The position numbers and the translations under genes are program-made. A DNA stretch of 64,000 bases from an uncultured Eubacteriales bacterium (lineage in GTDB: Bacteria > Bacillota > Clostridia > Christensenellales > Aristaeellaceae). This document shows, piece by piece, positions 245 to 43,800 of this stretch. Each line of letters starts with the position of its first letter. The first letter of the stretch is position 1. The notes beneath the pieces were generated by a model. It searched no databases. It saw nothing but the letters and a program-made list of their open reading frames with translations, and had not been told where the DNA came from. The stretch lies in contig OMZY01000014.1 in assembly GCA_900315675.1 (NCBI GenBank), forward strand, positions 1 to 64,000, in the 5' to 3' direction.

Positions 245-325
245 TTCCGGTGGCAATGACGAAGAGGTTCCACCTGTTCCCATACCGAACACAGAAGTTA
301 AGCTCTTCAGTGCCGATGGTACTTG
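245..325 (+). rRNA. rrf: 5S rRNA, truncated at the 3' side
   Basis: The 5' two thirds of a bacterial 5S rRNA are clear: helix I strand tccggtggc, then cgaagagg, the near-invariant cccataccgaacacagaag, the ttaagctcttcag strand and gccgatggtact. The family length is about 115-120 bases. Homology stops near 325 and the 3' strands of helices IV/V and helix I (expected gccaccgga-like) are missing; a hairpin with a T run follows directly. It is therefore either a 5S pseudogene or a rearranged or misassembled copy. The 5S match is secure, its functionality is doubtful. Confidence 0.65.
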
Positions 326-327
326 AC

Positions 328-26176: not shown

Positions 26177-27733
26177 ATGGTCAAGAAGCTCCTGGCTATC
26201 CTGATGATTATGACCCTGCTGGGCAGCTGCGTTTCTGCACTGGCGGATGAAGCGAAAACAGTCTATGTTTCCGATTTTTCAAAGAATTCGGACGACTGGT
26301 ACGGCCGCGGCGCACAATGCTACAACACGGTGGACGCTACACTGAAGACCATCGGACGGCAGAATAGCTGGAATTCACCGGGACGGGATTTTCCCCTGAT
26401 CGAGGGCGGAAAATACGATCTGAGCGTTGAAGTCAAACAGGATGACCTGGAAAAGGCCAGTTTCATGATCTCCATTGCACACAGCGTGGAAGGAATGGAA
26501 ACCTATGAAAACCTAGCCTTTGGTGAGGCAAAAAAGGGCGAATGGACAACGCTGACCGGCAAATATACCGCGGGGGACTATTCCCGTTATGTGCTGTATG
26601 TGGAAACGGCCGGGGCAGAGAACCTGGATTTCGAAATCCGGAATTTCACGGTGACCGCGCCTGAAGGAGAACCGGAACCCAAGCCTACTGTGCCGCCGAT
26701 GGTGATTGAGGAAGCCGGAGAGGTGCCGAGCCTGAAGGAAATCTATGCGGACAGGTTTGACTTTGGCTCCGCGGCTCCCCAGATGGTTTTCCGGGATCTC
26801 AAATGGCTAAAACTGATGAAAGAGCAGTTCAGTATCCTGACACCGGAAAATGAAATGAAGCCGGATTCTGTGCTGGATGTGGCCGGGAGTAAGAAGCTGC
26901 TGGAGGAAACCGGGGATGAAACCGCCGTGGCGGTCCGCTTTGACGCGGCAAAGGCGCTGCTGAGATTCGCCCAGGACACCGGGGTCAAAGTACACGGACA
27001 CGTGCTGATCTGGCACAGCCAGACGCCGGAAACCTTCTTCCATGAGGGTTATGACTCCAAAAAGCCGCTGGTGACCCGTGAGGTAATGCTGGGCCGGATG
27101 GAGAACTATATCAAAGGCGTTTTTGAATACCTGGACGCCAATTATCCGGGCGTGGTCGTTTCCTGGGACGTGCTGAACGAGGCGATTGACGACGGCTCCA
27201 ACTGGCTGCGGAACAGTAACTGGAAGAAGATCATCGGCGAGGATTATCCGAATTTCGCCTATGCCTATGCCCGCAAGTATGCCCCGGCGGATGTGAAGCT
27301 TTATTACAATGACTACAACACGGCAATGCCGGGCAAGCTGCGCGGGATTGTGAAGCTGCTGAACAGCCTGATCCCGGAGGGAAACATTGACGGCTACGGT
27401 TTCCAGATGCATCACAGCGTCTCGTTTCCGTCCATCCAGCAGATTGACACAGCCGTGAATACCATTGCCAATATGGGCATCCGCCTGCGCGTGAGCGAGC
27501 TGGACGTGACCGTGAGCAACAACAGTGAGGCATCCTTCAGAAAACAGGCACAGTATTATGCCGAAGTGATGAAGATTATCCTCAAGCACAGCGATCAGTT
27601 TGAAGCGGTTCAGGTATGGGGCCTGACCGATACGATGAGCTGGCGCGGTTCCCAGTACCCGCTGCTGTTTGACGGCAGGGGCAATCCGAAACCCGCGTTC
27701 TGGGCGGTAGCGGATCCTGAACACTGGCATTAA
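26177..27733 (+). CDS. Secreted GH10 endo-1,4-beta-xylanase with N-terminal CBM22-like module
   Basis: 518 residues. Signal peptide about 1-23 (ends VSALA). Residues about 25-170 form a beta-sandwich resembling CBM22 (GRGAQCYNTVDATLKTIGR, FPLIEGGKYDLSVEVKQD). The GH10 barrel covers about 190-518, with HGHVLIWHSQTPE, the acid/base Glu335 in WDVLNEAID and the nucleophile Glu441 in RVSELDVTV; both catalytic residues are intact. It hydrolyses xylan backbones outside the cell. aaagg precedes the chosen ATG; the long open frame upstream in this phase is not coding. Single-gene unit between its own promoter and terminator. Confidence 0.95.
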   Translation: MVKKLLAILMIMTLLGSCVSALADEAKTVYVSDFSKNSDDWYGRGAQCYNTVDATLKTIGRQNSWNSPGRDFPLIEGGKYDLSVEVKQDDLEKASFMISIAHSVEGMETYENLAFGEAKKGEWTTLTGKYTAGDYSRYVLYVETAGAENLDFEIRNFTVTAPEGEPEPKPTVPPMVIEEAGEVPSLKEIYADRFDFGSAAPQMVFRDLKWLKLMKEQFSILTPENEMKPDSVLDVAGSKKLLEETGDETAVAVRFDAAKALLRFAQDTGVKVHGHVLIWHSQTPETFFHEGYDSKKPLVTREVMLGRMENYIKGVFEYLDANYPGVVVSWDVLNEAIDDGSNWLRNSNWKKIIGEDYPNFAYAYARKYAPADVKLYYNDYNTAMPGKLRGIVKLLNSLIPEGNIDGYGFQMHHSVSFPSIQQIDTAVNTIANMGIRLRVSELDVTVSNNSEASFRKQAQYYAEVMKIILKHSDQFEAVQVWGLTDTMSWRGSQYPLLFDGRGNPKPAFWAVADPEHWH

Positions 27734-27740
27734 ACGATGA

Positions 27741-27767
27741 ACAGGAGGGGAGACCTTCCTGTTTTTG
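27741..27767 (+). terminator. Terminator of the xylanase gene
   Basis: Stem acagga/tcctgt with an internal gggg-agacct loop and a short T5 run. Moderate strength. Confidence 0.65.
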
Positions 27768-27783
27768 TATATCTGGAAAAAAC

Positions 27784-27812
27784 TTGAAATGAAAAATGAA
27801 AAGCGTTATACT
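27784..27812 (+). promoter_or_regulatory. Promoter of the pilus-assembly-like operon
   Basis: TTGAAA (27784-27789), 17-base spacer and TATACT (27807-27812). Leader of about 80 bases before the first gene. Confidence 0.65.
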
Positions 27813-27899
27813 CACTATGAGTACTTGTATACATAAATAAATGCATTTTTCCGGTGACTGTTCCAGCTGGTTTCCGGAAACCGGACATGGAGAGAACGG

Positions 27900-28823
27900 A
27901 TGGAAATCTATCATCCCAGAGACGAAGAACTGCTTCGCGAAATGAAGCGGGTGAGACGCTCCGACAGACGGAAGCGCCTTTTCCGGGGCCTGTCCATTCT
28001 GCTGATCCTGAGCTTTGCCGTCGGTCTCATTGTTTTCCATCGCTATTATCAGCTGGCCGTTACCCATGGCACCGCCATGGGGGATACGCTGCCGGAGGGA
28101 AGCCTGGTGCTGGTCCGCAGGCCTGAAGCCGGACAGATCTACAGCGCCGGGGATATCATCCTGTACGAAAAGCGGCTGGCCAAGCCGGTGGAGCTGACCA
28201 TCCTGAATGCGAAAGGCAAGACCCGCCGGTATTGCCGGTATGTGCTGTACCGGGACGTGGGAACCACGAGACAATACTATGTTTCGTCAGAAAATGGCTT
28301 TTCATGGATTGAAAGCGTTAACGGCGCGGAAATATTTGAAAGCACCGAAGAGGGGACTGTCAGCATCGGAACGGAGAATCTGAAGAACGGTGAATACTGG
28401 CTGAAAGAAGTGCAGGCCTCCTACGGGCAGCCGCTGCTGACGGATCCGATTCCGTTTGCAGTGGTCAACCCTGTGAAAACCCAGATGAAACGGGTGCTGG
28501 CCGGACCCGGAGAACGGGTGGTCCTGAGCCCCTATGCGGAAACCAGGGTGAACAGCCGGGAAATCAGTAAAACCTATACCTCCGGACGAACAGAGGACGC
28601 GGCTCCTGAGGGACGCCGGCTGATCATGGCACGGGACCGGTACTTCGTCCAGGGCGATCAGCTGAGCCTTTCTGTGGACAGCCGGGAAACAGACTACAGT
28701 ACTGTTTCTGAAGGAGAAATAATCGGACGGGCGGAGTTTGCCCTCTGGCCTCTGCAATGCTTCGGGAACCTGACAGGTGTGCAGACGACCATCGCCGGAA
28801 CAGAAACGGAGGCGATGGAATGA
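27900..28823 (+). CDS. Signal peptidase I-like (S26) protein, catalytic Ser lost, with inserted SpaA-like domain
   Basis: 307 residues with one transmembrane helix (about 30-48). S26 boxes are recognisable: box B is GTAMGDTLPEGSLVLV, where the nucleophile Ser of GxSMxPTL is Ala59; box D is MKRVLAGPGERVVL with the general-base Lys197 present; box E is FVQGDQLSLSVDSRET. Between boxes B and D, at about residues 94-190, lies an insertion that reads as a SpaA/Cna-B-like domain, including GTVSIGTENLKNGEYWLKEV and ASYGQPLLTDPIPFAVV. A dead signal-peptidase fold is known as a pilus-assembly factor (SipA of group A streptococcus), so a chaperone role is inferred. It overlaps the next gene by ATGA. Confidence 0.8.
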   Translation: MEIYHPRDEELLREMKRVRRSDRRKRLFRGLSILLILSFAVGLIVFHRYYQLAVTHGTAMGDTLPEGSLVLVRRPEAGQIYSAGDIILYEKRLAKPVELTILNAKGKTRRYCRYVLYRDVGTTRQYYVSSENGFSWIESVNGAEIFESTEEGTVSIGTENLKNGEYWLKEVQASYGQPLLTDPIPFAVVNPVKTQMKRVLAGPGERVVLSPYAETRVNSREISKTYTSGRTEDAAPEGRRLIMARDRYFVQGDQLSLSVDSRETDYSTVSEGEIIGRAEFALWPLQCFGNLTGVQTTIAGTETEAME

Positions 28824-29785
28824 AGAAGCTGGCTGCAGGAATCCTGATTATTCTGCTGATTTTTGCCGTTGCCGGTTATTTCCTGTATCCGGTGATTTCC
28901 GATCAGCTGGGCCGGAGACGGGACAGCGGCATTATGCAGGACTACCGAGCAAAGACCGCGCAGATGAGCAGCGAACAGCGGGAAAAGCTGTTCGGCGAAG
29001 CAAAGGCATGGAACGAAAGCCTGGAGGAGATCCGCGTTGAAGATGTCTTTATGAAAGACAATCAGCGGACTACGAGGGATTATCAGAATCATATGAACGT
29101 GCACGACGGCGTCATTGCAGAGCTGGTGATCCCGGATATCGGCGTGACGCTGCCGGTTTTCCACCAGAGCACGGAGACGCCGGCAAACCTGAAACTGGTA
29201 CATGTGAATACCAGCTCCCTTCCAGCGGACGGAAGCAGGGAGAACATTGTGCTGGCGGGGCCCGGCTTGCTCAAAGCTGAAGGCTTTTTGAGTGAGATCG
29301 GACTGACAGATGACAGGATGTTGGAAGGCCTGGACAAATTGATTCCGGGTAATCTGGTGATCCTGAACGTATTGGACCGGACCATGGTTTACCGTGTAAA
29401 AGGCGTACAGATGCTTGCTTCAGCCGGACTTGGGGACCTTGATCTGACGCCGGAGGAAGGCGATGAAAAGCTGACGCTGATTACCCAGCGGAAGGATCAG
29501 CGGCTGCTGGTCCAGACAGAACGCATTCCTATTTGGGAGGCAAGGACACTGCTGGCGGAAACAGACCGGGTTTCATTCCCAGCGGACTGGCAGAATGTAC
29601 TGTTCCTGGGCTTTCCGGTGCTGCTGGCGGGCCTGCTTGTGCTGTGGGTTATAGAAATCATCAAAGGACGTGCCTACAGGCTGCCCGGGGAGGGCAGGAA
29701 AGCAGACCAGGAACAAAGAGAAAAAAATGCAAGAGAGACGATAGAGCAGATCGGAACAGAAATCAGTGAGGGTGAAGAGCCATGA
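28820..29785 (+). CDS. Class C sortase-like protein with catalytic residues lost
   Basis: 321 residues with the class C sortase layout: N-terminal helix (about 3-22), helical linker, sortase beta-barrel (about 95-245) and C-terminal helix (about 258-283) with a charged tail. ELVIPDIGVTLPVFHQS and HVNTSSLPADG align with the family, but the catalytic His (usually SGHRGLP) is Pro148 in VLAGPGLL, and the catalytic Cys (TCTPYG) is Gln223 in LITQRKDQRLLV, with four residues deleted before the retained Arg228. It cannot work as a transpeptidase. Compare the intact sortase at 36767. Start chosen at the ATG after ggaggc, overlapping the previous stop. Confidence 0.8.
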   Translation: MKKLAAGILIILLIFAVAGYFLYPVISDQLGRRRDSGIMQDYRAKTAQMSSEQREKLFGEAKAWNESLEEIRVEDVFMKDNQRTTRDYQNHMNVHDGVIAELVIPDIGVTLPVFHQSTETPANLKLVHVNTSSLPADGSRENIVLAGPGLLKAEGFLSEIGLTDDRMLEGLDKLIPGNLVILNVLDRTMVYRVKGVQMLASAGLGDLDLTPEEGDEKLTLITQRKDQRLLVQTERIPIWEARTLLAETDRVSFPADWQNVLFLGFPVLLAGLLVLWVIEIIKGRAYRLPGEGRKADQEQREKNARETIEQIGTEISEGEEP

Positions 29786-30552
29786 GAAAACCTGGAATAA
29801 GACTGGTATACGCTATGCTGGCATTTATGCTTCTGTTTTCCTGTGCGCCTGTTTTTGCAGAAACGCAGGAGAAGGCAGATGGCTGGCTGAGTATTACTGT
29901 CGGGGATGAGAGGAGCGGGTTCAATCCGGAAGGAACCCGTATAGCCATCTATCTGCTGGCCACAGGTGATTACGGAGACTGGAAAATGACTGATAACTTC
30001 AGTGATATAACGGTCTTTACAAGGGATGACGGATCTGCGTCAGTCGATATTACACTCGGACAAATTCGCAGACGCATCGATGACCGGAAGCTCAAGCCTG
30101 TGGAAGAGGCGGTCAGCGATGAAAAGGGAAAAATCGAGTTTAAAAACCTGTCACATGGTATTTATTATGCTGAGATGATTGCTGGTCCTGACAGACTGAA
30201 GATGAGTCCCATGCTGATTTCGATACCGAGCAAGAGCGGAAATCCACAGGTGCGAGCAGTTGCAAAGTATGAATATGAAACGCCTTCACCCAGCCCGACT
30301 CCGTCACCAAAGCCGACACTGACGCCTTTCGTACCGCCGGTGACGCCGACCAGTGACAATACGCCGGCACCGCCTACCAGAGAACCGGAACCGACGCCGA
30401 CAAATTCCCCGAATCCGAATACGACCCCGGTACCGCCGCATGTTCCGACACTTCCGCCCGGACCGCAGGAATCCACTGTTCCGCTGGAGGATTATGAAGC
30501 GGCGCTGGGCCTGGGGAATATCCAGATGCATGTAGGCGTTTGTTATGAATAA
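29782..30552 (+). CDS. Secreted SpaA-like protein with Pro/Thr-rich tail and no cell-wall anchor
   Basis: 256 residues. Signal peptide about 1-26 (ends PVFA). Residues about 30-165 resemble a pilin prealbumin-like domain: GTRIAIYLLATGDYGDW, EKGKIEFKNLSHGIYYAEMI and KMSPMLISIPS. Residues about 170-232 are a low-complexity spacer of repeated PTPSP/TPxPP units. There is no LPXTG motif and no C-terminal hydrophobic helix; the protein ends in a short soluble region (YEAALGLGNIQMHVGVCYE). It could be a non-covalently held minor pilin or a ligand of the neighbouring pseudo-sortase. Overlaps the previous gene by ATGA. Confidence 0.7.
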   Translation: MRKPGIRLVYAMLAFMLLFSCAPVFAETQEKADGWLSITVGDERSGFNPEGTRIAIYLLATGDYGDWKMTDNFSDITVFTRDDGSASVDITLGQIRRRIDDRKLKPVEEAVSDEKGKIEFKNLSHGIYYAEMIAGPDRLKMSPMLISIPSKSGNPQVRAVAKYEYETPSPSPTPSPKPTLTPFVPPVTPTSDNTPAPPTREPEPTPTNSPNPNTTPVPPHVPTLPPGPQESTVPLEDYEAALGLGNIQMHVGVCYE

Positions 30553-30589
30553 ACAAAACCGGAAGAAAGAACACGGGAGACGGACGTAT

Positions 30590-32620
30590 ATGAAACGACT
30601 GATTGCGATCATAGCGGCAGGAATAATGCTTCTGGGCGCAATGTCCGCTTTTGCGGAAGACCGGCCGGAGGCAACGGTGGAGCCGGTTCTCTCGTATCCG
30701 GACAGGAATTATGAGGAACTGGTTGTCGGCAATCCTACTCCGATGGACGGAAAGTTCTTTACGGGAATGTGGGGAAATGCCACTACAGATATTGACGTTC
30801 GTACGCTGGTCAACTCTTATTACCTGACCATCTGGGGTTATGACACAGGTTTTTTCCGGGCCAATCCGGTGACGGTAGCGGGACTCAGCGTGACAGAGGA
30901 CGCCAAACAGTACAGAAAGTACCGTTTTCAGCTTGCAGATGATCTGTTCTATTCTGACGGAACCCGGATTACCGCCTGGGATTATGCTTTTTCCGTGTTG
31001 TTCCAGATTGCACCGGAAATCAGCGAATTGGGCGGATTGCCCATGGATCTTTCCTATCTGGAAGGATATGAAGATTATGTTTCCGGTGAGGTGCCGTATC
31101 TTGCAGGCGTCCGGGTGACAGACGATCTGAAAATTGAGTTTTCAGTCAAACCGGAGGCACTTCCATATTTCTTTGAATTGTATCGGCTCGGTTTCCTGCC
31201 GTACCCGATCCATGAGATTGCACCCGGATGCAAGGTCTTTGATGACGGAATGGGAATCTATATCGGGAATGAAGATCCGGATGTCCTTGAAAAGATCTTC
31301 AGCACGGAGCTGCTGCAAAAAACCGTAATGGATCCTGATAACGGTTATTTGTCCCATCCAACGGTAGGAAGCGGCCCTTATGTGCTTACTTCCTGGGACG
31401 GGCAAACCTGCACGTTTGAGATTAACCCTTATTTCAAGGGAAATTCAGAAGGCTTTACGCCCAGTATTCCTAAGCTGCGTTTCACCCTGGCTGAAAATGA
31501 CACCATGATTGACAAACTGGAAGCAGATGAGTTCCAGCTGCTGAATAAGGTGGTCCGCAGGGACGTAATTGAAAAGGGAATCGGGTTGGTTTCCTCCGGG
31601 AAAGGATACACGCTGACAAATTATCCGCGTATCGGTTTATCCTTTATTGTTTTTACGCCGGACAGCCCCGCACTGCAGGAACAGGATGTGCGCCAGGCGA
31701 TCAATTTCTGCATGGACAAAGACGCTATGCGGGAAGACTATACCCATCTGTACGGGATAACCATGGACGGCATGATCGGTATCGGACAGTGGATGTACGG
31801 TATGGTCATGGGTACAGAGGAGTATCCGGAAACCCTGCCGGAGAATCCGACACCGGAGGAAGAGGAGGAATACAACCAGAAGATCAGCGAGTGGAAGGCA
31901 CTCTCCCTGGATGGATTGAAGCACTATGAGCTGGATGTGAACAAAGCAGTCCGTCTGCTGGACGGAAACGGCTGGACGATGAACACGGAAGGCAGACGTT
32001 TTCAGGCAGGACGGGATGAAGTGCGCTGCAAGAAGATCCGGGGCGAGCTGATCACACTGGAGCTGACCTGTGCATATCCGAAGGATAATATCATGGCAGC
32101 TTCCATGGAAGAGTATTTTGTACCTTTCCTGAAGGAAGCGGGAATAAAGCTGACACTGATTCCCATGGAAATGAAGGAACTACTGAAAGCTTACAATGAC
32201 AGGGATATTGAAAACATCGACATGTTCTACCTGGGAGATGACTTCAATATAGAATTTGATCCGCAGCTGTTCTTCCTGGCCGGTGATCCTGACGCATCGA
32301 AGGAGGATACGCTGGCCTGGGCACATGCTCAGATGGCGGAATACGCACGGCTGATGTGTGAGACGGTACCAAGCGACGCACTGGGATTTGTCCGGAAATG
32401 GATTACCTTCCAGGAAAAACTGAGCGATCTGCTGCCGCTGATTCCGGTATATTCCAATGTGTATTATGACTTCTACACCAGCGACCTGATGAACTACGAT
32501 ATTATCAAGTATATAACCTGGGGCGACGCCATTGTCCCGGCCAATTACTACAATGTCTATCAGTCCATGCTGGACATGGGGATAGATCCCACGGTTATGG
32601 AGGAAGAAGAAAATCCGTAA
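30590..32620 (+). CDS. Family-5 (oligopeptide-type) ABC solute-binding protein, orphan
   Basis: 676 residues. Signal peptide about 1-22 (ends SAFA); no lipobox. Family-5 features: FQLADDLFYSDGTRITAWDYAFS near residue 110, YRLGFLPYPIHEIAP, HPTVGSGPYVLTSWDGQTCTFE and QDVRQAINFCMDKDAMRED. These proteins bind peptides, nickel or oligosaccharides such as cellobiose in some anaerobes. There are no permease or ATPase genes next to it, and it lies in the middle of the pilus-assembly-like operon. The chosen ATG starts the signal peptide and follows gggag; a longer form beginning at 30545 is possible. Confidence 0.8.
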   Translation: MKRLIAIIAAGIMLLGAMSAFAEDRPEATVEPVLSYPDRNYEELVVGNPTPMDGKFFTGMWGNATTDIDVRTLVNSYYLTIWGYDTGFFRANPVTVAGLSVTEDAKQYRKYRFQLADDLFYSDGTRITAWDYAFSVLFQIAPEISELGGLPMDLSYLEGYEDYVSGEVPYLAGVRVTDDLKIEFSVKPEALPYFFELYRLGFLPYPIHEIAPGCKVFDDGMGIYIGNEDPDVLEKIFSTELLQKTVMDPDNGYLSHPTVGSGPYVLTSWDGQTCTFEINPYFKGNSEGFTPSIPKLRFTLAENDTMIDKLEADEFQLLNKVVRRDVIEKGIGLVSSGKGYTLTNYPRIGLSFIVFTPDSPALQEQDVRQAINFCMDKDAMREDYTHLYGITMDGMIGIGQWMYGMVMGTEEYPETLPENPTPEEEEEYNQKISEWKALSLDGLKHYELDVNKAVRLLDGNGWTMNTEGRRFQAGRDEVRCKKIRGELITLELTCAYPKDNIMAASMEEYFVPFLKEAGIKLTLIPMEMKELLKAYNDRDIENIDMFYLGDDFNIEFDPQLFFLAGDPDASKEDTLAWAHAQMAEYARLMCETVPSDALGFVRKWITFQEKLSDLLPLIPVYSNVYYDFYTSDLMNYDIIKYITWGDAIVPANYYNVYQSMLDMGIDPTVMEEEENP

Positions 32621-32643
32621 AAAACCGAGCGGAGGAACAGCGC

Positions 32644-33039
32644 ATGGCAAAGAACATGCTGAAAAACTACGGGCGTTTTGAACTGCTGGAACTGATATAC
32701 AACATGCGGAAGGAAAACCTGGAACTGAAGGAACGCTGCGACGCGGCGGAACGACAGGTGGTTGAGATCCGGATGCAGACGGAAAAGCAGCTGGATAACG
32801 CACGGCGGGACTACGAGAACCGGATTGAAGAGCTCCGGATGCAGGGTGCTGCAAAAGATCTGCAGATCCGGATGAAGAAGATCGAGGAACAGCTGCGACT
32901 GCTGCAGAAACTGACCATGGTGGATATAGATTTGCCGGAAATGCCTACGGAGGAAGAAATCGAGCAGGTGGCAGAACAGGAAGCCCGTGACCGTGAGGGG
33001 CAGATGAGACTCCTGAAAGAAGAACAGAAAACTGAGTAA
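32644..33039 (+). CDS. Coiled-coil protein of sortase loci
   Basis: 131 residues, predicted as one long coiled coil (about 10-100) of Glu/Lys/Arg-rich heptads, cytosolic, without signal peptide. The N-terminal MLKNYGRFELLELIYNMRKE resembles the beginning of small coiled-coil proteins I remember next to pilin and signal-peptidase genes in Clostridia; biochemical role unknown. ggagg lies nine bases upstream. It sits 23 bases after the binding protein and 14 before the second S26-like gene. Confidence 0.65.
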   Translation: MAKNMLKNYGRFELLELIYNMRKENLELKERCDAAERQVVEIRMQTEKQLDNARRDYENRIEELRMQGAAKDLQIRMKKIEEQLRLLQKLTMVDIDLPEMPTEEEIEQVAEQEARDREGQMRLLKEEQKTE

Positions 33040-33053
33040 ACGAGGGGACAGCC

Positions 33054-33653
33054 ATGGCCGGAAAAACAAGAAAAGCCGACACAATGCCGGATCTGAAAGA
33101 AATAGAGACCGAAATGAGCCAGGTCCGGAGCAAAGGAAGGTTCAGGCAGGCGCTCAGAGGCACTTTCGGAACCTTTATTGTGGTGGCGGCACTGGCGGTG
33201 ATTATTGCCTTCATTTTCCTGCCTGTTTTACGGATTACGAACGGACATAACATGGAGCCCGGACTCCAGCCTGGAGACATAGTTATTCTTCAGAAAACTG
33301 ACGACGTGAAGACTGGGGACGTATGCGCTTTCTACTTCAATAACAAACTTCTCCTGCGCCGTGTGATTGCGCGGGAAGGGGATAAGGTGGAGATTGATGA
33401 GAAGGGATACGTGAAGGTGAACGGGGAGTTCCTGGAAGAAGACGGGTACATTTCAGAGCATGCCCTGGGTCAGTGTGATATTGATTTCCCGTTCCGTGTG
33501 CCGGCGGGACAGCTCTTCGTGATGGGAGATAACCGGGACTATGCCCTGGACAGCCGGGCGACCAATTTCGGGTGCATTGCGCAGGACGAAATCTTTGGGA
33601 AACCGTTGGCGCGGATCTATCCCTTTGGCAGCCTGACCTGGTATGGGTTATGA
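33054..33653 (+). CDS. Signal peptidase I-like (S26) protein, catalytic dyad replaced
   Basis: 199 residues with a transmembrane helix at about 39-60. The S26 fold is clear (QPGDIVILQ, VKTGDVCAFYFNNKLLLRRVI, EGDKVEIDEKGYVKVNGEFL, FVMGDNRDYALDSRATNFGCI). The nucleophile Ser is Asn66 in NGHNMEPGL and the general-base Lys is Arg102 in LLLRRVIA, so proteolysis is not expected. Overall it resembles the signal-peptidase homologues that accompany class C sortases. A pilin chaperone role, as for streptococcal SipA, is inferred. Last gene of the operon that begins at 27900; the pilin gene follows under its own promoter. Confidence 0.82.
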   Translation: MAGKTRKADTMPDLKEIETEMSQVRSKGRFRQALRGTFGTFIVVAALAVIIAFIFLPVLRITNGHNMEPGLQPGDIVILQKTDDVKTGDVCAFYFNNKLLLRRVIAREGDKVEIDEKGYVKVNGEFLEEDGYISEHALGQCDIDFPFRVPAGQLFVMGDNRDYALDSRATNFGCIAQDEIFGKPLARIYPFGSLTWYGL

Positions 33654-33730: not shown

Positions 33731-33858
33731 TACATCACAGTATAGGATACATATACCATGTTACTTTTCACAGGGAACCTTGAAGGCATTGAGAAATGCC
33801 GGATTTGAATGATAGAAGTCTACTTTGCGACTATATTATTTAAGAGGGGATGCTTACA

Positions 33859-35310
33859 ATGAAGAAACTGTTTGCTTTGATGCTCGCGCTGGCAATGGTA
33901 CTTGTGGCAACTGGTGCATTCGCTGCGAAGATCACCATTAACAGTACAGCCGGTGACGATGTCCAGGCGGATACAACGGTATACACATATTATAAGATTC
34001 TTGATGCAGATATCGAGAATCCCACAGCGGTTACCGTTGATCCTGATAGCGGAGAATCTACCGCTGCGACTGAAGGCGATAATGTTCCCAGAGTCTCATA
34101 TTATGTAACGACTCAGGCTAAGGCTACGGCTTTGGAAGAAACCGGCTTGTTCACTGTAACAAAAGATGCTACTGCTGACAAATGGTACGTTGCATTAAAA
34201 GATGACAGCACTACAGGTGCCGATATTGCAACAGCATTGAACGCAATAAAGACTGTTTTTGCTGATGCATCCGATACTTTTGCACAGACTGCGCCCGGCG
34301 GTACTGCAGTAAAAGATGGACTGGCTCCCGGTTATTATCTGATCACTTCGACGCTGGGTGATGTGCTGGCTGTACAGACACTGGCCGATATCACAATCAA
34401 CACAAAGAATGATTATCCCACTGTGGATAAGACGATTCCGGAAACAGACAAGTCAGCACAGATTGGGGACACCATTACTTACACAATTACAGTAGATGTT
34501 CCTGATTCCGCTGTTGATCAGATCGTTGTTACAGATACGATGACGTCAGGATTGACTTTCAAAAGTATCACTTCTGTGGAGAATGGTACTGATGCACTTG
34601 TTGCTGACACAGACTATACTTTCGCAAAGGCCAACGATCAAAGCTTTACGGTCACATTGAGCGCCACTACTGTTACAGCGAACAAAGGGAAAACAATTTC
34701 TATTATCTATACGGCAGTCCTTAATAAAAATGCAGTGGTCGATGCGGCTGATGACACTGACGCAGATGCAACGAGCAACGACAATACTGTCAAGATCAAT
34801 TATGGAAACCATTTTGAGTCCAAGCCTGTGACTGTTGAAACGGATACCCAGAAATTCACCTTTGATAAGGTTGACGGCGCAGATCAGAAAAAACTTCCCG
34901 GTGCCATATTCGAACTCCGGCTGAATGATACGGCCCTGAATCTGATTGAAGTTACCGCGGGAGAAGTTTATCGCATTGCCACTGCGGAAGAAATAGCGGA
35001 TGACAGCATTGCCAAGGTCACCCAGATGACAACAACCGGTAAAGTCATTACTGTCAATGGTGTGGACGGGGATGTTACCTATCAGCTTGTTGAAACGCAG
35101 GCGCCGACCGGATACAACCTGCCTGATGATCCCACCACTGTAATTAAACCCGCAACAGATAATACCCTGGAAGTCACCATTGAGAACAACAAGGGTACGG
35201 TGCTCCCCAGCACAGGCGGTATGGGTACCACGATCTTCTATGTGGTCGGCGGACTGCTGATCATCGGCGCGGCCATCGTGCTGGTGGCTCGTCGCAAGGC
35301 TCACGAATAA
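33859..35310 (+). CDS. Major pilin-like protein with SpaA and isopeptide-D2 domains and LPSTG anchor
   Basis: 483 residues. Signal peptide about 1-22 (ends GAFA). N-terminal pilin domain about 25-183, then a YPTVDK motif (Lys191) that resembles the YPK pilin motif used as the sortase acceptor, a fimbrial isopeptide-D2-type domain (about 190-330; SAQIGDTITYTITVDVPDSA), a SpaA domain (about 335-440; KKLPGAIFELR, and the E-box VTYQLVETQAPTGYN), LPSTG at 449-453, a hydrophobic helix and the basic tail RRKAHE. Expected to be polymerised by a class C sortase, presumably that at 36767. Codons are more AT-ending than in neighbouring housekeeping genes. Confidence 0.92.
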   Translation: MKKLFALMLALAMVLVATGAFAAKITINSTAGDDVQADTTVYTYYKILDADIENPTAVTVDPDSGESTAATEGDNVPRVSYYVTTQAKATALEETGLFTVTKDATADKWYVALKDDSTTGADIATALNAIKTVFADASDTFAQTAPGGTAVKDGLAPGYYLITSTLGDVLAVQTLADITINTKNDYPTVDKTIPETDKSAQIGDTITYTITVDVPDSAVDQIVVTDTMTSGLTFKSITSVENGTDALVADTDYTFAKANDQSFTVTLSATTVTANKGKTISIIYTAVLNKNAVVDAADDTDADATSNDNTVKINYGNHFESKPVTVETDTQKFTFDKVDGADQKKLPGAIFELRLNDTALNLIEVTAGEVYRIATAEEIADDSIAKVTQMTTTGKVITVNGVDGDVTYQLVETQAPTGYNLPDDPTTVIKPATDNTLEVTIENNKGTVLPSTGGMGTTIFYVVGGLLIIGAAIVLVARRKAHE

Positions 35311-35531: not shown

Positions 35532-36749
35532 ATGCGGAATAAGACGATGATCTCCCTGCTGCTGGCTTTATGCCTGATGTTCAGTATTGCGGCCGGACTG
35601 GCGGAACCGCCGGTTCAGACAGAAGGGATTGTTATACCAGTGCTGGATGATCTGAAAAAGTTCGAAATTCCAGATAACGACGCCATGAAACTGCTGAAAG
35701 ACATGAAGTGCGGCTGGAACCTGGGAAATACCTTTGACGCATACAACGGGTACGGCTCGCATGCCTGGGGAACATCCATGGAAACCAGCTGGGTAGGCGT
35801 AAAAACTACAAAGAACCTAATTGCCGCCATCAAGGAAGCAGGTTTCAATACCATCCGGATGCCGGTCAGCTGGCATAACCACGTGGATGAAAACGACATC
35901 ATTGACCAGGACTGGATGGACAGGGTGAAGCAGGTTGCCGGCTGGGCTTTGGATGAAGGTATGTATGTAATCGTCAACACACATCATGACAACGATGTGA
36001 AATACTACTATCCGGATACGGTTCATTATGACCGTTCCGAGGCCTATCTTTCCTCTATCTGGACACAGATGGCGGAGGCATTCAAAGACTGTGATGACCA
36101 CCTGATCCTGGAGTCCCTGAATGAACCCCGGCTGGTGGGAACTGCGTATGAATGGAACTGGAACAGCAATGTGTCAGAATGCCGGCTGTCAGCCAAATAC
36201 CTGAACCAGCTGAACCAGAAATTTGTGGATATTGTACGCGCTTCCGGCGGGAACAATGCTACGCGCTATCTGGCGGTTCCGGCTTACTGCGCGTCACCCT
36301 GGAACGCCATAGACCAGGCCTTCCAGCTGCCGGAGGACACGGCGGATAACCGGATTATTGTCGCGGCCCACGCCTACACGCCTTACAACTTTGCCCTGAA
36401 CATTCAGAGCAAGGACCGGACGTTTGACATTGAAAAGGATCAAAGCAAAAAAGGCGAAATTGCCAACTTTATGAACGGCCTGTATAACCGTTTCATTCAG
36501 AACGGCATCCCGGTCATGATGGATGAATTCGGCGCGCTGGACAAGGACGGAAACCTGCAGGACCGCGTCAACTTTACCGCATACTATGTTGCGTCCGCCA
36601 GCGCACGGGGCATTACCTGCGTGTGGTGGGACAACCACAACTTTACAGGCGGCGGCGAACGTTTCGGCCTGATCCGGCGCAATACGCTGGAATGGGTTTA
36701 TCCGGATATTGCCCTGGCGATTCAAGCCAACTGTCTCTATAACCGGTAA
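35532..36749 (+). CDS. Secreted GH5 endoglucanase (cellulase)
   Basis: 405 residues. Signal peptide about 1-24 (ends AGLA); the GH5 barrel covers about 45-400 with MKCGWNLGNTFDA, the RMPVSWHNH strand, the His pair in VIVNTHHD, the acid/base Glu198 in ESLNEPR and the nucleophile Glu332 in MMDEFGA. It looks like subfamily GH5_4, which cuts beta-1,4-glucan and xyloglucan. No binding module, dockerin or LPXTG is present. Strong site ctggagg. It ends only 17 bases before the class C sortase gene with no terminator between them, so the two are probably co-transcribed. Confidence 0.93.
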   Translation: MRNKTMISLLLALCLMFSIAAGLAEPPVQTEGIVIPVLDDLKKFEIPDNDAMKLLKDMKCGWNLGNTFDAYNGYGSHAWGTSMETSWVGVKTTKNLIAAIKEAGFNTIRMPVSWHNHVDENDIIDQDWMDRVKQVAGWALDEGMYVIVNTHHDNDVKYYYPDTVHYDRSEAYLSSIWTQMAEAFKDCDDHLILESLNEPRLVGTAYEWNWNSNVSECRLSAKYLNQLNQKFVDIVRASGGNNATRYLAVPAYCASPWNAIDQAFQLPEDTADNRIIVAAHAYTPYNFALNIQSKDRTFDIEKDQSKKGEIANFMNGLYNRFIQNGIPVMMDEFGALDKDGNLQDRVNFTAYYVASASARGITCVWWDNHNFTGGGERFGLIRRNTLEWVYPDIALAIQANCLYNR

Positions 36750-36766: not shown

Positions 36767-37681
36767 ATGAGGGAAAAGGGAAGAACTCCGCAGGGCGGAA
36801 TCGGGAAGAAGAAAAGCCACCGGGTATCCAATACGATCCTGGTGTTGATTCTGCTTGCCGGCGTGGCCATTGCGGGTTATCCCATGTTCAGTGAATACTG
36901 GAACAGCATGCACCAGTCCAGGGCGATCATGGGCTATGCGGAACGCGTGGCAGAGCTTTCCAACGATGAATATGTAAGCGTATGGGAAGACGCCCTGGAG
37001 TATAACCGCAGACTTTCCTCGGATCCAAATCCGTGGGCGATGACGGATGAAGATATTGACGAATATGAACGGCAGCTGAATGTGGACGGAACAGGAAATA
37101 TGGGATTTATTTCCATTCCAAAGATCGATGTAAATCTGCCGGTTTATCACGGCACCAGTGACGCGGTACTGCAAACTTCCATCGGACATATAGACGGTAC
37201 CTCCCTGCCGGCCGGAAGTATCCATCCGGATCCGGATCAATATGACAAGGTGGAATTTGCTTCCCACAGTGTGCTGAGCGGTCATCGGGGCCTGCCCAGC
37301 GCAAAGCTTTTCAGCGACCTGGACGCTATGGAGGAAGGAGATGTATTTTACCTGACCATCCTGGACCAGACGCTGACTTACCAGGTAGACAAGATCACAG
37401 TGATTCTTCCGGAAGACAGTTCCGAACTGGCATTGTTTTCCGGAAAAGATTATTGTACCCTGATGACCTGTACGCCGTACGGTATCAATACGCATCGTCT
37501 GCTGGTGAGAGGCGTACGGGTGGAAAATGATAAGGAACTGCTGGATATACGTGTAACAGCGGATGCCCTGAAAATCGAGCCGCTTTATGTGGTTCCGTTC
37601 ATAGCAGGGCCAGTTCTGCTGCTGATGATTCTGTGGGTTGTACTCTTCGCAGGAAGAAAAAAGAAATCAAGATATTACTGA
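36767..37681 (+). CDS. srtC: Class C sortase (intact)
   Basis: 304 residues with an N-terminal helix (about 22-41) and a C-terminal helix (about 270-292). Catalytic residues are all present: His173 in VLSGHRGLP, Cys235 in MTCTPYG and Arg244 in HRLLVRG. A lid segment of the DPxW type (DPNPW) precedes the barrel. It joins pilin subunits through an LPXTG-type motif to a Lys of the next subunit; likely substrates are the LPSTG proteins at 33859 and 37845. Its position behind the cellulase gene rather than behind the pilin is unusual. Confidence 0.95.
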   Translation: MREKGRTPQGGIGKKKSHRVSNTILVLILLAGVAIAGYPMFSEYWNSMHQSRAIMGYAERVAELSNDEYVSVWEDALEYNRRLSSDPNPWAMTDEDIDEYERQLNVDGTGNMGFISIPKIDVNLPVYHGTSDAVLQTSIGHIDGTSLPAGSIHPDPDQYDKVEFASHSVLSGHRGLPSAKLFSDLDAMEEGDVFYLTILDQTLTYQVDKITVILPEDSSELALFSGKDYCTLMTCTPYGINTHRLLVRGVRVENDKELLDIRVTADALKIEPLYVVPFIAGPVLLLMILWVVLFAGRKKKSRYY

Positions 37682-37844: not shown

Positions 37845-40800
37845 ATGACCAACCGAAGAGAACGGAAACGTGAATTTCGGCAGCCGAACCCCTGGAGGAG
37901 ACTGTTAGCTTTCCTGTGCGCGTTTGAGCTGCTTATTTCTGTTTCCGGCGAAACGGCTTATGCGAAGAATAATAACACGATCTATTCCGCGCCTGTAACA
38001 GCACCGATCCGGAATCAGGAAACCCCGCAGCCGGAAGAAGCTGCAGAGACACCTGAACCTGAAGGTGCAACGGTAAATACAGAAGAGCATACAGAGGTCA
38101 ATTCAGAAACGGAAGAACCGACAGAAACTGAAACAACTGTAGAAAATCCTGAAGATAACCATAACGAACAGGAAGAGATGCCCGCGGCAGAGGAAACCAC
38201 CGGGAATCAGGAGGATATACCCGCTGCGGAAGAGACTGACATAGAATCCGGAGAGAAAACAGAAACGGGGACTGAAAGGGAAGAAACAGAAACATCAGAA
38301 GCAACAGGAGAAGAAGCGGTAACAGAGAAAAACGAAGGAGAAATCCCCCCTGCTCCTGAAAAAATCTATACATCCGGAAGCCTTCAGGCAGAAACTGAAG
38401 ACTGTTCGGTTCAGATCAATTATACCGAAGCAGCCTGTATTCCGGATGAAACGACCCTTACTGTGACGCAGGCCCAGGGGGCGGATCTGTATGCTGCACT
38501 GAAATCGGCTGCCAAAGTAATCCGGAATGAAGAAGATGAGATCTGGAAGCGGCAGATAGCGGATGAAGGAAATGCATTTTATCTGCTGTCCCTTACAGAC
38601 GCTGAAGGAAACGAAGTATATCCGGGAGCACAGGTTGAGCTGATTCTTGAACAGAAGAATCGGCCGGACGGTACTACGTGCTTCCTGACCGGTGAAAATG
38701 CCAGAATTCTGGATGAAGAAGAAGGAAAGATCTCTGTCACGGATTACAGTATGGAACCTGTCGGATATGCGACGATCCAGCTGATCCAGACCGGGATAGT
38801 AACGAAGGAATACTCCGGTGCAGATTATATTGTAACGGCTTCCTATGGCCCGGAAGCAAACTTCCCGGCCAATACGGAAATGAAGGTGCGGGAAATTCGT
38901 CCCGATACGCCGGAATATGCTCTGTACAGCGGGCTGACAGAAGAAGCACTGGCGGAGGAATGGAATGAAATCACGCTGGAGCGCTACTTTGATATTACAT
39001 TCATCAGCGGCGGAAAAGAAGTGGAACCGTCGGGGAATGTGGATGTGCAGATCGTCTTCAAAGACGTGATTGAACTGACAGAAGAGCATGATATTCAGGC
39101 TGTTCATTTTGAAAACAAAGAAGCGGTCGTGATTGAGTCTGAAACGGATTCCATCGACGAAGAAGCCAAACGAAGCGAAGAAGTGATCGACACGGTGTCC
39201 TTCACATCTGACAGCTTCTCTGTATTCGGTGTGGTTCAGCGCACAAAGATTACTCAGAAGATGCTGGCTGCGGACGGCAATACCTATCTAATCAACGTTA
39301 CATACAATCAGGATTCAGGATTGCCGGTGGACGCGGAACTGGTGGTTACAGAACTGCTACCCGGGGACGAACGGTATGATGAATACCTGCAGAAAGCAGT
39401 CAGAGCGGCACTCAATGAATCAGATGACGGTGAAGTTGCCGATGAAGATCAGGAATTGTTTGTCTCAGAAGATCAGTACGCACGCTTCTTCGATATTGAA
39501 ATCCGCTCCGGAGATCAGAAGATTGAACCGGAAGGCAACGTATCTGTAAGTATTACACTGGCGGATGCTCCGGAAGATCGACTGGATGATCTGATGGTTG
39601 TACACTTCACAGGGGAAAATGCGAATATCCTTGAGGCAGAGGTCAATGTGGAAACTGGGATTCAGTTTGCTGCAGATTCCTTCTCGGTGTACGGTATAAT
39701 AACTATGCCGCTTGATCAGCCGCAAGGTGTGGATGATCTGGATGAGAGATCGTTTACGATCAGCCACAATGGGAAGTATGTGACATCTAGTATTCTCACC
39801 GGCGGAAATGCAGACAGATTTGCTGAAACGGGAAACAGCAATGATGCTACTGTATGGACTTTTGAAGCAACCGGTCAAAGCGGAAAATATAACATTTATA
39901 CTATAGATAATCAGGGAAACAAGATTTACATGCATTTAAAGCGAAAGAACAATAATCGCGCAGATGCAGAAATAGGCACAGAACCCCAGGAATTTACTAT
40001 TACCCGGAGCAACAATGGTAGATATGTTTTTGCCGCAACGAGCAATGGCAGTACTTATTATCTGAATGATTACAACGGTGAAGATGGATTTGCCGGATGG
40101 CACCGGCAGAATTCCAGCTATGATGAGATGACTCTTGAGTTTAAGGATCTTGCTGTGGAAAATGGTAAATCCTACATAACTCTGGTGAAGTATAACGGAA
40201 AGTATTACATTGTGAATAATGATGGGTCACTGACGGAAGTCGTGTATAATGAATCGACAAAAAAGGTTAAAGTGGAAAACCCGCTTTTGTGGAAATATGA
40301 AAACAACGGTCAGGGGGCTACTCTGTCTATAAACACAGAGGGCAGTGTTTTTGGTGGCCCCGGTGGCGTTGCAACTGAGTATTATAAGCGTTATATCGAT
40401 GTAAATACAGACAGTGGTATTTATACAGAAGATGCTTCCCACACAAGTGGTGCCAGTGAATCAAAATTTGTTTTTGCTGATGGACATATCAGAAGCTTGG
40501 ATGGTTCTTATTATTTGGGCGTGGAAGAAGATGAGAATGGTCTGAGAATATCCGGCAACAAAAATGCCAGTGATGCGGTTGAAGTCTTGTTTGCAAGCGT
40601 TGAGGATGTAACAGTTCCTTCACATTATGCCAGAAATCACGCTGTTACACATTTGGATGTTTCTGTTCATGGAAATGCACAATTGGACTATCCGCTGCCT
40701 CGGGGAACATATTATGACGAGAACGGTAATGTGTTGTACACAATCGGCCGAGATAATCCTAAATCCATTACAATCAAAGAAGCAGTTCCTATCACAAAAG

Positions 40801-43800
40801 AAGATATCAAGAATGCGGATATCATAGCTACAGATAAAAATGGCAATGAGATCAACAATGCTTTCTATATAACTGGATATACGGGAAACCAAGGAGATAA
40901 CGACCCGAATATGCCGACACAAATCCGGATTGAAGGCTCCTTCCTGGTAGCAAGCAATGTAACAACTGCGTATCCCACAGAATGGACCGGAGATGAAGGC
41001 GAATACTGGGGCATTCTGAGGGACAATGCAACCCATCAGGCAATCCGGACGGAGCGGAAAGACGGTGAGATCACCTATACAGTTACAACGACAAAGATGG
41101 TTACTTTTACACTAACAGATGGTGACCAGATTCTATATGATGCAGAGCATCAGCCGATTACTGTTGAAGTACCCGTGACCATGACAGGCAGTTGCTCGTA
41201 TTGGAGCAAGAAAAATTCTTGCCCTGGTATTGATTATGCTCTGGGTGGCGGCAGGGCGGAAAATGGAGCCTGGGATTCTGGCTGTATTGTTGCAGATGGT
41301 GATGCGTCTAATAGTAGTGGAATTGACTTTACGCTGGGCGGCTCCACCAAACAGGCAGAGAATGCATATCCCTCTGTTGATATTACCAAATATATTGTTG
41401 ATGAAGAGGGAACGCTGCTTGCAACGACTGAGGCCTTCCAGAATTCTTTTACAGTATATCAAATCGAGAATAACAATTTGGCTTCAGAATGTAATTCTGA
41501 TTACAGCGCTTATACAGAAGAAGCCAAACTGGACGTTTCAGTTGCCGGTGGTGTTGGGAAAAACTATTATGATCTGAATGTGCTCGGTGCAATGATTTAC
41601 ATCGAGGAGGATAAAAAATCCATTCCGAAAACAGTCAAGGTTGATGGTATTGAATGGCAATATGTGAAGACAGTAATTGAAACAGAGTATGTCCGCAGGG
41701 GAGAAGAAAATGAGTCCAACCACAGGACAGAGGAACTGACCCTGGGAAATGATGAGCATTACAACAGTATTCCTGAACTTGCCGGTGCATACAGGTATAA
41801 TAATGAAGATCTAAACAACGCAATTCTGAACTTCTATGTATATAATGTTTATAGGGCCCCAACGGAAATTAACGTTGAAAAGATTTGGTCGGATGACGCA
41901 AGCCATTATGAAAGTAATGAACTCACTTTGAAGTTGATCAGATATAAAAAGAATACACAGCAGACAGAGGAAAAAGGGATATTGAATCTTTCTCATGTAG
42001 TAGAGGGATTGAATGGATTACCGGATGATTTCACGTATATAGCGACCAGTAGTTCTTCGGGCAAACTTTACACGCTACATATAGGTGAAAACACACAGTT
42101 GCCTTTGGGTAGATACACGATTACGGTGGAGAGAAATGGTAACAACTGTCCGGAGGGTTATACCTATGATGGCACTGATATTGACAGAACTGAGGTCTTG
42201 CTTGATACAGCAAGCGAGCCTGTGAATGTAACAGTTACCAGCAGATATAGGCAGAATGCACCTGTGGAAATGACCACGGTGATACTGTATATAAATAATT
42301 CGATTCAGACGGACAGGAATAGTAATGTCGGTATTACATTAGAGGTACCGAAAAATTCGACTATTTATTTAAGCTGTACTACTTTTGTGATGAATCAGTA
42401 TAATGCTTGGGATGAACCTTGCTCGCTACTGTATTGGGATGAAGTATCAAATCCGGGTTGGCATCATTGGACGAAGATACAGGATATTGGGAAGACTCCT
42501 ATGACCAACATGCCTATTCAGCTCGGAGATGAAGATGCATACTGTGTATTGATCGAACACTGGAGTGGTCAAAGCAATTTGGCAACTTATTCTCTTTCTG
42601 CAAGTGCATCAGGCAGAATGAATACAATTCGTATGCGTGGATATCGGGCGGCCAGTGGCGCTGTATCGGGAGGGAGCAGATCTTCCGAAATACCGGACGA
42701 TTATAGTCTGGACACCTATACAAAAACGATTACGCTTACACAGGCACAAGGCTGGCAAGATATGGTTGATGAACTGCCGGTCTATGATAAGAATGGTGAT
42801 CCTTACTATTATGAAGTAGTAGAAGAGGATGTACCTGAAGGATATACGGTAAGCTATAGTCCGAATACACCGGTACTTGCTACAGAAACTGAAGGGATTA
42901 CACTGACTGTTTATAACACATATCCGACAACTGGTGATCTTCTCGTGTCCAAAACAACGGGAGGAAATGCGGCGGATTATAATAAGGGATTTAACTTTAC
43001 AGTGACAGCATTGGATTCCGTTGGAAATCCGATTCCAAACAGGCAATATGGAGACATGGTATTTACAAACGGTATAGCTGAGTTTGCCCTTTCACATGGA
43101 CAAAGCGCCAAAGCCCAGGGATTACCGGAAGGTACTGCCTTTACTGTAAGGGAAGATCCGGATGGATATGAAGCTGACCGAGAGAGTGAAGATGGCACGA
43201 TTGTTGCCGGACAGACTCAGAATGTTGCCTTTACCAACATATTGAATACATATCAATTCTTTGTTAAGAAGAGTTGGGTCAGTGTAGAAGATACATCTGC
43301 CATGCCGACGGTTTTCTTCTCCCTGATGTATTATCTAGAAGGACAACAGCCGCACGAAGCAACCGTCTATAACGGTTATGAGAACATCCCCCTGAGTGGT
43401 CCGAATTGGATCTGGGCCTGTCCGGAAGAACTTCCGACAGAGATCAATGGAAGACGTGTTACTTATTTTGCCAAGGAACGTACAGCTGCGGGCAGCAATA
43501 TATATGCGTATTATGACATGTCCGGTTATGATATTCCAGAAGCGTTAAGACAACAGTATATGTTCTTCATAGATGGCTATCAGAACAGTCTTGGTAATTA
43601 CACACCGGGCAATGATCAGCCGTATAATGCCGGAATTCAGGGCAATGCAGGTATTATAACCATCAGGAACCGGATGCCTCAGTACATGCAGATGGAAGTT
43701 AAGAAGAAATTCCTGGAATACAGAACTGATTCCAACGGAGCCACCAGCCTTTATACGACTACCCAGGAAGAAGTAAACCAGAGGAATATGGTTATTGAAC

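What the first reader, a model, noticed from the sequence alone, without database searches (positions are those of the whole stretch)
27784..33653. Operon of pseudo-enzymes: a candidate non-catalytic surface-assembly module
One promoter and tight spacing join a dead S26 with SpaA insert, a dead sortase, a secreted SpaA/Pro-rich protein without anchor, a family-5 binding protein, a coiled-coil protein and a second dead S26. The only intact catalytic sortase is in a different transcript. Three families losing catalysis in one operon points to a coherent function such as a chaperone or sensing platform rather than random decay.
Basis: inference. Interest (0 to 1): 0.82.

Follow-up and report, generated by a model that had tools for sequence, protein, structure and literature searches.

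The report
Pilus-base cassette with new C-terminal tag
A gut bacterium's surface-pilus locus keeps, under selection, enzyme look-alikes that have lost their catalytic residues, next to a protein whose last 26 residues look like a previously unreported surface-sorting tag paired with its own peptide-binding-protein partner.

Summary
The six genes are real, tightly packed (two ATGA overlaps) and conserved: S26a, srtX, spaA, SBP5, CC, S26b keep this order in all 19 loci not cut by a contig end (window plus 18 relatives, two genera). The pseudo-sortase srtX lacks catalytic His and Cys in 21 of 21 members and S26a has a broken Ser-Lys dyad in 21 of 21, but S26b is intact in 11 of 20 cassettes, so 'three dead families' holds for the window's sub-clade only. 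All six are under purifying selection. The tag profile matches 103 of 308 family genomes and 0 of 244 others sampled; in 95 of 150 listed cases the next gene is this SBP5 subfamily, and tag class follows the SBP5 tree. Best reading: base-assembly and anchoring part of a sortase-built pilus, in which pseudo-enzymes hold the basal pilin and an OppA-fold protein binds its tag in place of an LPXTG anchor. Binding and location are inferred, not shown.

The parts
27739..27764 (+). terminator-like hairpin before the operon
   Evidence: pattern scan
27784..27812 (+). promoter-like site of the operon (10 of 12)
   Evidence: pattern scan; weak on its own
27900..28823 (+). S26a: membrane-anchored pseudo-signal peptidase with SpaA insert; Ser to Ala, Lys kept
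   Evidence: Pfam; dyad broken in 21 of 21; one hydrophobic helix
28820..29785 (+). srtX: pseudo class C sortase; catalytic His, Cys and Arg replaced; hydrophobic helix at each end
   Evidence: Pfam; residues; AF2 and Foldseek; helices
29782..30552 (+). spaA: secreted SpaA-like/Pro-rich protein, proposed basal pilin, ending in the tag
   Evidence: (SpaA below cut-off)
30475..30549 (+). codons of the C-terminal tag that the profile matches; the stop codon follows
   Evidence: tail profile A4, E 7.6e-16
30590..32620 (+). SBP5: secreted OppA-fold protein without lipobox, proposed tag receptor
   Evidence: Pfam; pairing; AF2 and Foldseek
32644..33039 (+). CC: coiled-coil-like protein without signal peptide or helix through the membrane
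33054..33653 (+). S26b: signal peptidase family, dead here (Ser to Asn, Lys to Arg), intact in 11 of 20 cassettes
33850..35310 (+). major pilin with LPSTG signal, own promoter-like site at 33702
35532..36749 (+). GH5 cellulase-family enzyme, in the unit of srtC
36767..37681 (+). srtC: intact class C sortase
   Evidence: Pfam; motifs
37845..45971 (+). 2708-aa adhesin with LPSTG signal

Best explanation
The six genes are the base-assembly and anchoring part of a sortase-built pilus. spaA is the basal pilin: a SpaA-like head, a Pro-rich stalk and, where such pilins normally carry LPXTG plus a membrane helix, a C-terminal tag. S26a and srtX are membrane-bound look-alikes of the two enzymes that bind a pilin's two ends (signal peptidase and sortase); they bind without cutting and hold spaA at the assembly site, as proposed for SipA. 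SBP5, an OppA-fold protein, is the tag's receptor: it binds the free C-terminal peptide, as chaperone or anchor adaptor, in place of anchoring by a housekeeping sortase. CC and S26b are older, more general partners of pilus loci; S26b has an intact dyad in most relatives and became a pseudo-enzyme in the window's sub-clade. Shown here: gene order, residue losses, constraint, the tag, its pairing with SBP5, and the link of the pseudo-S26/second-sortase pair to a protein with the DYxTPL motif. Inferred: the basal position of spaA, physical binding, and how SBP5 stays at the cell.
For: Order kept in 19 of 19 uncut loci; a pilin downstream in 12 of 13 uncut genus-g1 loci. srtX dead in 21 of 21 and one clade, with class C pilus-sortase fold in the model. 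dN/dS 0 to 0.36. The tag ends at the stop codon in 58 of 59 distinct proteins. 95 of 150 listed tails are followed by SBP5; 131 of 150 listed SBP5 rows have a tagged protein upstream, 5 do not, 3 run off the contig, 11 not examined (my count). By genome 97 of 103 tail genomes hold SBP5 at 1e-150. The HVGDC tail class is one SBP5 clade of 27, and tag and SBP5 change together within otherwise related cassettes. SBP5 model nearest to OppA-peptide complexes. In six loci of other genera the protein after the second sortase has DYxTPL beside an ordinary sortase signal.
Against: No binding, expression or localisation data. Tag and SBP5 occur in many genomes without srtX (103 genomes with a tail; 21 srtX members), so srtX is not needed for the tag system. 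The six uncut genus-g30 cassettes have no recognised pilin next to them. spaA's SpaA match is below the Pfam cut-off, and the g30 spaA L127 has no Pfam match. SBP5 has no visible anchor. 6 of 103 tail genomes lack SBP5 and 26 genomes have SBP5 at 1e-150 without a profile-listed tail. For SipA itself, pull-downs showed no association with FctA or the sortase (PMC7900414 passages). Both AF2 models are of middling confidence (pLDDT 78).
Confidence: 0.42

Rival explanations
1. The tag is a docking module that displays SBP5 on surface proteins and pili; SBP5 is a catcher of nutrients or oligosaccharides for fibre-degrading cells, not an anchoring receptor. Binding would be the same, the purpose reversed.
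For: SBP_bac_5 proteins bind peptides, nickel or chitin oligosaccharides (titles). GH10 and GH5 genes lie beside the cassette in several loci, and a GH10 gene lies next to a 2264-aa tagged protein in L187.
Against: No permease within 6 kb of the four SBP5 genes of G000. The tag class follows the SBP5 clade, which a general display signal would not need. The tag stands on a basal-pilin-like protein in each uncut cassette.
Confidence: 0.2
2. The tag is a substrate of an unidentified enzyme that modifies the Cys three residues from the end (lipid, thioester or disulfide), and SBP5 is an escort that keeps the tag free until then.
For: Cys at position -3 in 68 of 75 tails with SBP5 and G at -5 in 73 of 75. 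MYXO-CTERM, another C-terminal tag, has an invariant Cys predicted to be lipidated (PMC11980579 passages).
Against: 7 of 75 tails have Thr, Ser or Ala there and still pair with SBP5. No candidate enzyme was seen or searched for by phylogenetic profile.
Confidence: 0.2
3. Random decay: the operon is a degenerating pilus cluster and shared losses reflect descent only.
For: Several catalytic residues are gone in all three enzyme-like genes of the window. In other genera the second sortase ranges from intact (L062) through Cys lost (L091) to His and Cys lost.
Against: dN/dS 0 to 0.36 for all six genes and 0 to 0.064 for the dead S26b; open frames and the same residue losses in 21 of 21 members of two genes; srtX is one supported clade, 98/96.
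Confidence: 0.03

Closest known systems
SipA/LepA pseudo-signal peptidase of Streptococcus pyogenes FCT pilus operons (PMC4049620, PMC7900414; passages read)
   Same: S26 fold without the Ser-Lys dyad, one membrane helix, encoded in a pilus operon; proposed peptide-holding or chaperone role
   Different: Two S26 genes here, one often intact; S26a of the window has a SpaA insert; a pseudo-sortase and SBP5 stand beside it; the assembling sortase in the window is class C, in GAS it is class B
Class C pilin sortases
   Same: Sortase domain, class C fold in the model, helices at both ends
   Different: srtX lacks His and Cys in 21 of 21 members; none of the other-family loci inspected has this
FctB-type basal pilin (PMC7900414 passages)
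   Same: Small, SpaA- or Ig-like head, Pro-rich tail, gene beside a pseudo-S26
   Different: No LPXTG, helix or basic end; a conserved soluble C-terminal tag instead
C-terminal sorting tags: LPXTG, PEP-CTERM, GlyGly-CTERM, MYXO-CTERM (PMC11980579 passages; PMC1569441 and PMC3237569 seen in a listing only)
   Same: Short homology at the extreme C-terminus of otherwise unrelated surface proteins, several tags per partner
   Different: No membrane helix and no basic cluster; the linked partner is a substrate-binding-protein fold, not a protease or transpeptidase
OppA and other family-5 substrate-binding proteins
   Same: Fold; nearest solved structures are lactococcal OppA with peptide
   Different: No lipobox in the window member, no adjacent permease in G000, next to a tagged surface protein

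Membership tests
SipA-like pseudo-signal peptidase (S26a, S26b) | S26 signal-peptidase profile | tested here: met
   Pfam PF10502 above cut-off for both
SipA-like pseudo-signal peptidase (S26a, S26b) | Ser-Lys dyad lost | tested here: met
   S26a 21 of 21 broken; S26b of the window broken, but 11 of 20 S26b intact and 1 with Ser to Thr
SipA-like pseudo-signal peptidase (S26a, S26b) | required for pilus polymerisation | not testable with these tools
   needs a knockout
Class C sortase (srtX) | sortase domain and class C fold | tested here: met
   Pfam PF04203; Foldseek; but NCBIfam class_C_sortase 106.9 bits, below its cut-off of 160
Class C sortase (srtX) | catalytic His, Cys and Arg | tested here: not met
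   His and Cys absent in 21 of 21; all three absent in the window
LPXTG-anchored basal pilin (spaA) | SpaA-type domain with Pro-rich stalk | tested here: inconclusive
   Pro-rich stalk seen directly; SpaA 18.7 bits against cut-off 23.1
LPXTG-anchored basal pilin (spaA) | LPXTG, membrane helix, basic end | tested here: not met
C-terminal sorting tag (CTERM type) | same motif at the C-terminus of unrelated secreted proteins | tested here: met
   58 of 59 matches end at the stop; bearers differ in domains
C-terminal sorting tag (CTERM type) | membrane helix and basic cluster after the motif | tested here: not met
   the motif is the last residues
C-terminal sorting tag (CTERM type) | cognate processing enzyme | tested here: inconclusive
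   linked partner is SBP5, no enzyme; no profile search for an enzyme was run
ABC-transporter oligopeptide-binding protein (SBP5) | family-5 fold | tested here: met
   Pfam PF00496; Foldseek
ABC-transporter oligopeptide-binding protein (SBP5) | lipoprotein encoded with permeases | tested here: not met
   lipobox-like stretch in 11 of 80 (3 of 80 by the narrower window), none seen in the window member; no PF00528 match within 6 kb of the four G000 genes

The most novel reading that the evidence does not exclude
A new protein-sorting system: a soluble C-terminal tag (DYxTPLGxG...[HN]VGxC[FY][ED]-COOH) read by a dedicated OppA-fold receptor, with no cutting enzyme. It arose when a basal pilin kept its DYxTPL motif but lost the sortase signal beside it, and a pseudo-sortase and a pseudo-signal peptidase were kept as non-catalytic holdases for that pilin.
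Probability: 0.36. Interest if true: 0.9.

Novelty: new variant of a known kind. Interest (0 to 1): 0.74.

Why it matters
If right, surface proteins and pili of a bacterial family with ruminant-gut members are held by a receptor that binds a tag rather than by sortase chemistry, and a class C sortase fold has been kept as a non-enzyme. The open question of what SipA-type pseudo-enzymes do would become testable in a system with a defined peptide motif and a soluble partner, and pseudo-sortases would be a thing to look for elsewhere.

Tried and rejected
Decay was tested by dN/dS and by residue conservation and rejected. 'Three families lost catalysis together' was rejected: S26b is intact in 11 of 20 cassettes. 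The idea that the tag's main partner is the pseudo-sortase was dropped, since tails occur in 103 family genomes against 21 srtX members. The tag as a chance domain end was rejected (58 of 59 matches end at the stop on differing domain sets). A local ABC-transporter role for SBP5 was tested in G000 and not supported. Dead class C sortases in other families: 16 of 137 other genomes of the class had class C hits at 1e-10; in the loci kept for the best of them every sortase whose Cys motif was covered holds a Cys (four short frames not covered). NCBIfam gave no sorting-tag model for two tagged proteins from elsewhere in G000 nor for spaA, and Pfam matches did not cover the tail. Literature: no paper holds any of six tail strings; searches for inactive or pseudo-sortases gave two papers that were not opened and nothing on point in the listing and 22 papers of which 12 were listed, none on a pseudo-sortase by title. 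This covers only the open-licence PMC library.

Rows dropped or handled by hand: L001 has the contig length of G066's C44 and was left out of counts as a duplicate; overlapping re-fetches (L136, L137, L140, L141) were left out. In one search, seven partial duplicates and five out-of-family SBP5 were dropped from 92, and three tails (L058, L299, L303) were assigned by hand because the regular expression took a wrong frame or missed 'DDC' endings. Many of those 80 were fetched for a tail or for lacking a listed one, so 75 of 80 is not a random sample. The loose regular expression used there also matched 49 of 2997 ORF C-termini in sixty 20-kb loci, true tails included, and 1 of 157 in the window. 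The count 131/5/3/11 of 150 was added up by me. Listings are cut at 150 rows, and one search scored at most three candidates per genome. In the first four-group sortase tree four long rows of other sortase types were left in the 'live' group.
Full report
WHAT IS THERE. The window is contig C28 of a 3.6-Mb draft genome, G000. Six genes run in one direction between a terminator-like hairpin and the promoter-like site of the next gene: S26a, srtX, spaA, SBP5, CC, S26b. S26a/srtX and srtX/spaA overlap by ATGA. Downstream follow an LPSTG major pilin, a GH5 enzyme with the intact class C sortase srtC, and a 2708-aa LPSTG adhesin, each unit behind its own promoter-like site. By hydropathy S26a and S26b have one membrane helix, srtX one at each end, spaA and SBP5 only an N-terminal one that reads as a signal peptide, CC none.

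CO-OCCURRENCE. A family search with srtX (31 of 150 genomes matched, any sortase counted) and a genus search (15 of 45) led to loci of up to 20 kb. The six genes are present in all 19 loci that are not cut by a contig end, window included, in the same order (maps; CC of L058): 13 of genus g1 and 6 of genus g30. Three more are cut by contig ends (L061 of genus g12, L082, L123). The CC profile has 20 of 308 family genomes at E below 1e-20, all of them genomes of these loci. G276 (L129) has a variant with an intact sortase, without S26a and srtX in the stretch seen. A pilin lies downstream in 12 of the 13 g1 loci and in none of the 6 g30 loci by my profile, apart from one 16-bit match.

CATALYTIC RESIDUES. 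srtX: His and Cys absent in 21 of 21; AGP stands where the live enzymes have SGH in 15 of 21. S26a: Ser replaced by Ala or Gly with Lys kept in 20 of 21; one (L128) keeps Ser and has Arg for Lys. S26b: both residues lost in 8 of 20 (G000, G066, G112, G132, G150, G168, G173, G175), which form one group in the tree of four joined genes; Ser to Thr in one (G186); both intact in 11. srtX of the cassettes is one supported clade, 98/96. Pairwise dN/dS among close species: S26a 0.06-0.17, srtX 0.12-0.26, spaA 0.11-0.26, SBP5 0.03-0.13, CC 0-0.36, S26b 0-0.064; for comparison srtC 0.03-0.09 and the pilin 0.21-0.24. The genes are maintained, the dead S26b strictly.

THE TAG. spaA has no LPXTG and no C-terminal helix, but its last residues are conserved up to the stop codon in the complete members (in L083 only the second half). 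A profile of this tail, A4, matches 103 of 308 genomes of the family at E 0.01, up to nine times per genome. In the loci held at that point 58 of 59 distinct matches end exactly at the stop codon; the exception is a variant tail in which the alignment stops 7 residues short. The bearers differ in domains: Cna_B repeats, 21 stretches in a 2750-aa protein; DUF7507/DUF11 repeats with MucBP; SpaA/Pro-rich proteins; a protein with FctA, DUF7601 and Cna_B. A class B-like sortase with MucBP repeats (L186) ends in a more divergent variant (VGICAE-stop) that the regular expression caught but the profile did not. A broader profile, A5, finds none in the 244 other genomes sampled from the class.

THE PARTNER. 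In 95 of 150 listed tails the next gene downstream on the same strand is a listed SBP5 (gap 8-601 bp, median 85); no other arrangement within 1 kb was seen. The upstream genes of SBP5 rows without a listed tail mostly end in divergent tails: altogether 131 of 150 SBP5 rows have a tagged protein upstream, 5 do not, 3 run off the contig and 11 were not examined (my addition). By genome, 97 of 103 with a tail hold an SBP5 at 1e-150 and 6 do not; 26 genomes have SBP5 only (Fisher p 2e-47; relatedness not corrected, and some of the 26 have divergent tails). On a tree of 80 SBP5 the HVGDC tail class is one clade of 27 (support 100), and HVGVC needs two changes for 16 rows, against 22.8 and 14.7 in shuffles. 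The tree of S26a, srtX, CC and S26b keeps the g30 cassettes together (support 1.0), yet L128 carries an HVGVC tag with an SBP5 of the HVGVC group while the other five carry HVGDC tags with SBP5 of the HVGDC clade. So tag gene and SBP5 gene change as a pair. In G000 three HVGDC tails (contigs C22, C36, C7) stand against one HVGDC-clade SBP5 on C7, which suggests a many-to-one pairing. The SBP5 model (pLDDT 78) is nearest to lactococcal OppA with bound peptide. None of the four SBP5 genes in G000 has a PF00528 permease match within 6 kb.

WHERE THE TAG MAY COME FROM. In six loci of other genera (L062, L065, L067, L068, L090, L091) an S26 with a broken dyad (Ser to Gly in five; L091 keeps a Ser and has Arg for Lys) and a second sortase stand together; the second sortase is intact in L062, has lost Cys in L091 and both residues in the other four. 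The next gene ends in DYGTPLWG or a close variant, followed by a TG sortase-type motif, a membrane helix and basic residues. Of 70 sorting-signal-like C-termini found by pattern in the loci held, only these six carry the DYxTPL pattern. The motif thus goes with the pseudo-S26 and second-sortase pair, and the window's tag has the motif without the sortase signal. A locus in another family (L134) has CC, an intact S26b, two pilins, an intact sortase and a SpaA-like protein with an ordinary LPXTG-type end, which I take as the ordinary state. The direction of change is inferred.

MECHANISM (inference). By size, composition and neighbours spaA resembles FctB, the basal pilin of S. pyogenes, which has an Ig-like domain and a Pro-rich tail and sits at the base (PMC7900414, passages). 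I propose that S26a and srtX bind spaA at the membrane without cutting and that SBP5 binds its tag. SipA precedent: essential for polymerisation, dyad lost, peptide cleft kept (PMC4049620, passages). Against: pull-downs with SipA found no partner (PMC7900414, passages). [quoted passage not shown] How SBP5 is held at the cell is open: docking to a permease encoded elsewhere, an uncleaved signal peptide, or a role as chaperone only.

A SECOND EXAMPLE IN THE SAME GENOME. Contig C24 (L186) carries a large surface protein, a pilin-like protein with DUF7601 just below cut-off, an S26 that by eye has Ser to Asp and Lys to Cys (SipA has Asp48 there), an intact class B-like sortase ending in a variant tag, and SBP5. 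G011 (L197) has an S26 without the Ser by eye, a DUF7601 protein, a class B-like sortase, a tagged protein (Thr for Cys) and SBP5. Pseudo-S26, tag and SBP5 thus recur in a setting like the FCT pili, without srtX.

LIMITS. That the family is Aristaeellaceae is my guess from the rumen origin of the one named relative and was not tested (L001, a goat-omasum Clostridia bacterium; only shows that the name exists). Tag-to-SBP5 binding rests on gene pairing and shared phylogeny alone. Absence from print was checked only in the open-licence PMC library.

Noticed in passing
L186 10193-11494 (G000 contig C24): A class B-like sortase with intact Cys and His carries two MucBP matches and ends in a variant of the tag; SBP5 follows and an S26 with a broken dyad precedes.
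   Followed up: partly
L062, L065, L067, L068, L090, L091: Intact sortase, S26 with broken dyad, second sortase (dead in five of six) and a protein with DYxTPL next to an ordinary sortase signal: a graded series of sortase loss in other genera of the family.
   Followed up: partly
L184, L188, L195, L200: Tagged protein plus SBP5 pairs in different genomes have ROK-family and/or xylose-isomerase-like genes as neighbours.
   Followed up: no
L134 (G384, another family of the class): CC and an intact S26b stand next to pilins and an intact sortase, so the CC-S26b pair seems older than the cassette.
   Followed up: partly
window 26177-27733 and 35532-36749: GH10 and GH5 genes flank the cassette and keep their places in several g1 relatives (GH10 beside S26a in L056, L057, L059, L076, L077, L078), hinting at a link of the pilus with plant fibre.
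   Followed up: no
window 246-327: A 5S rRNA match spanning 82 bases for a 120-position model at the left end of the contig; no tRNA in the window.
   Followed up: no
L061 501-3347 and L141 16769-17767: Extra copies: a second spaA-SBP5 pair upstream of the cassette in G056, and a second spaA with the same kind of tag in G152, with no SBP5 listed beside it.
   Followed up: no
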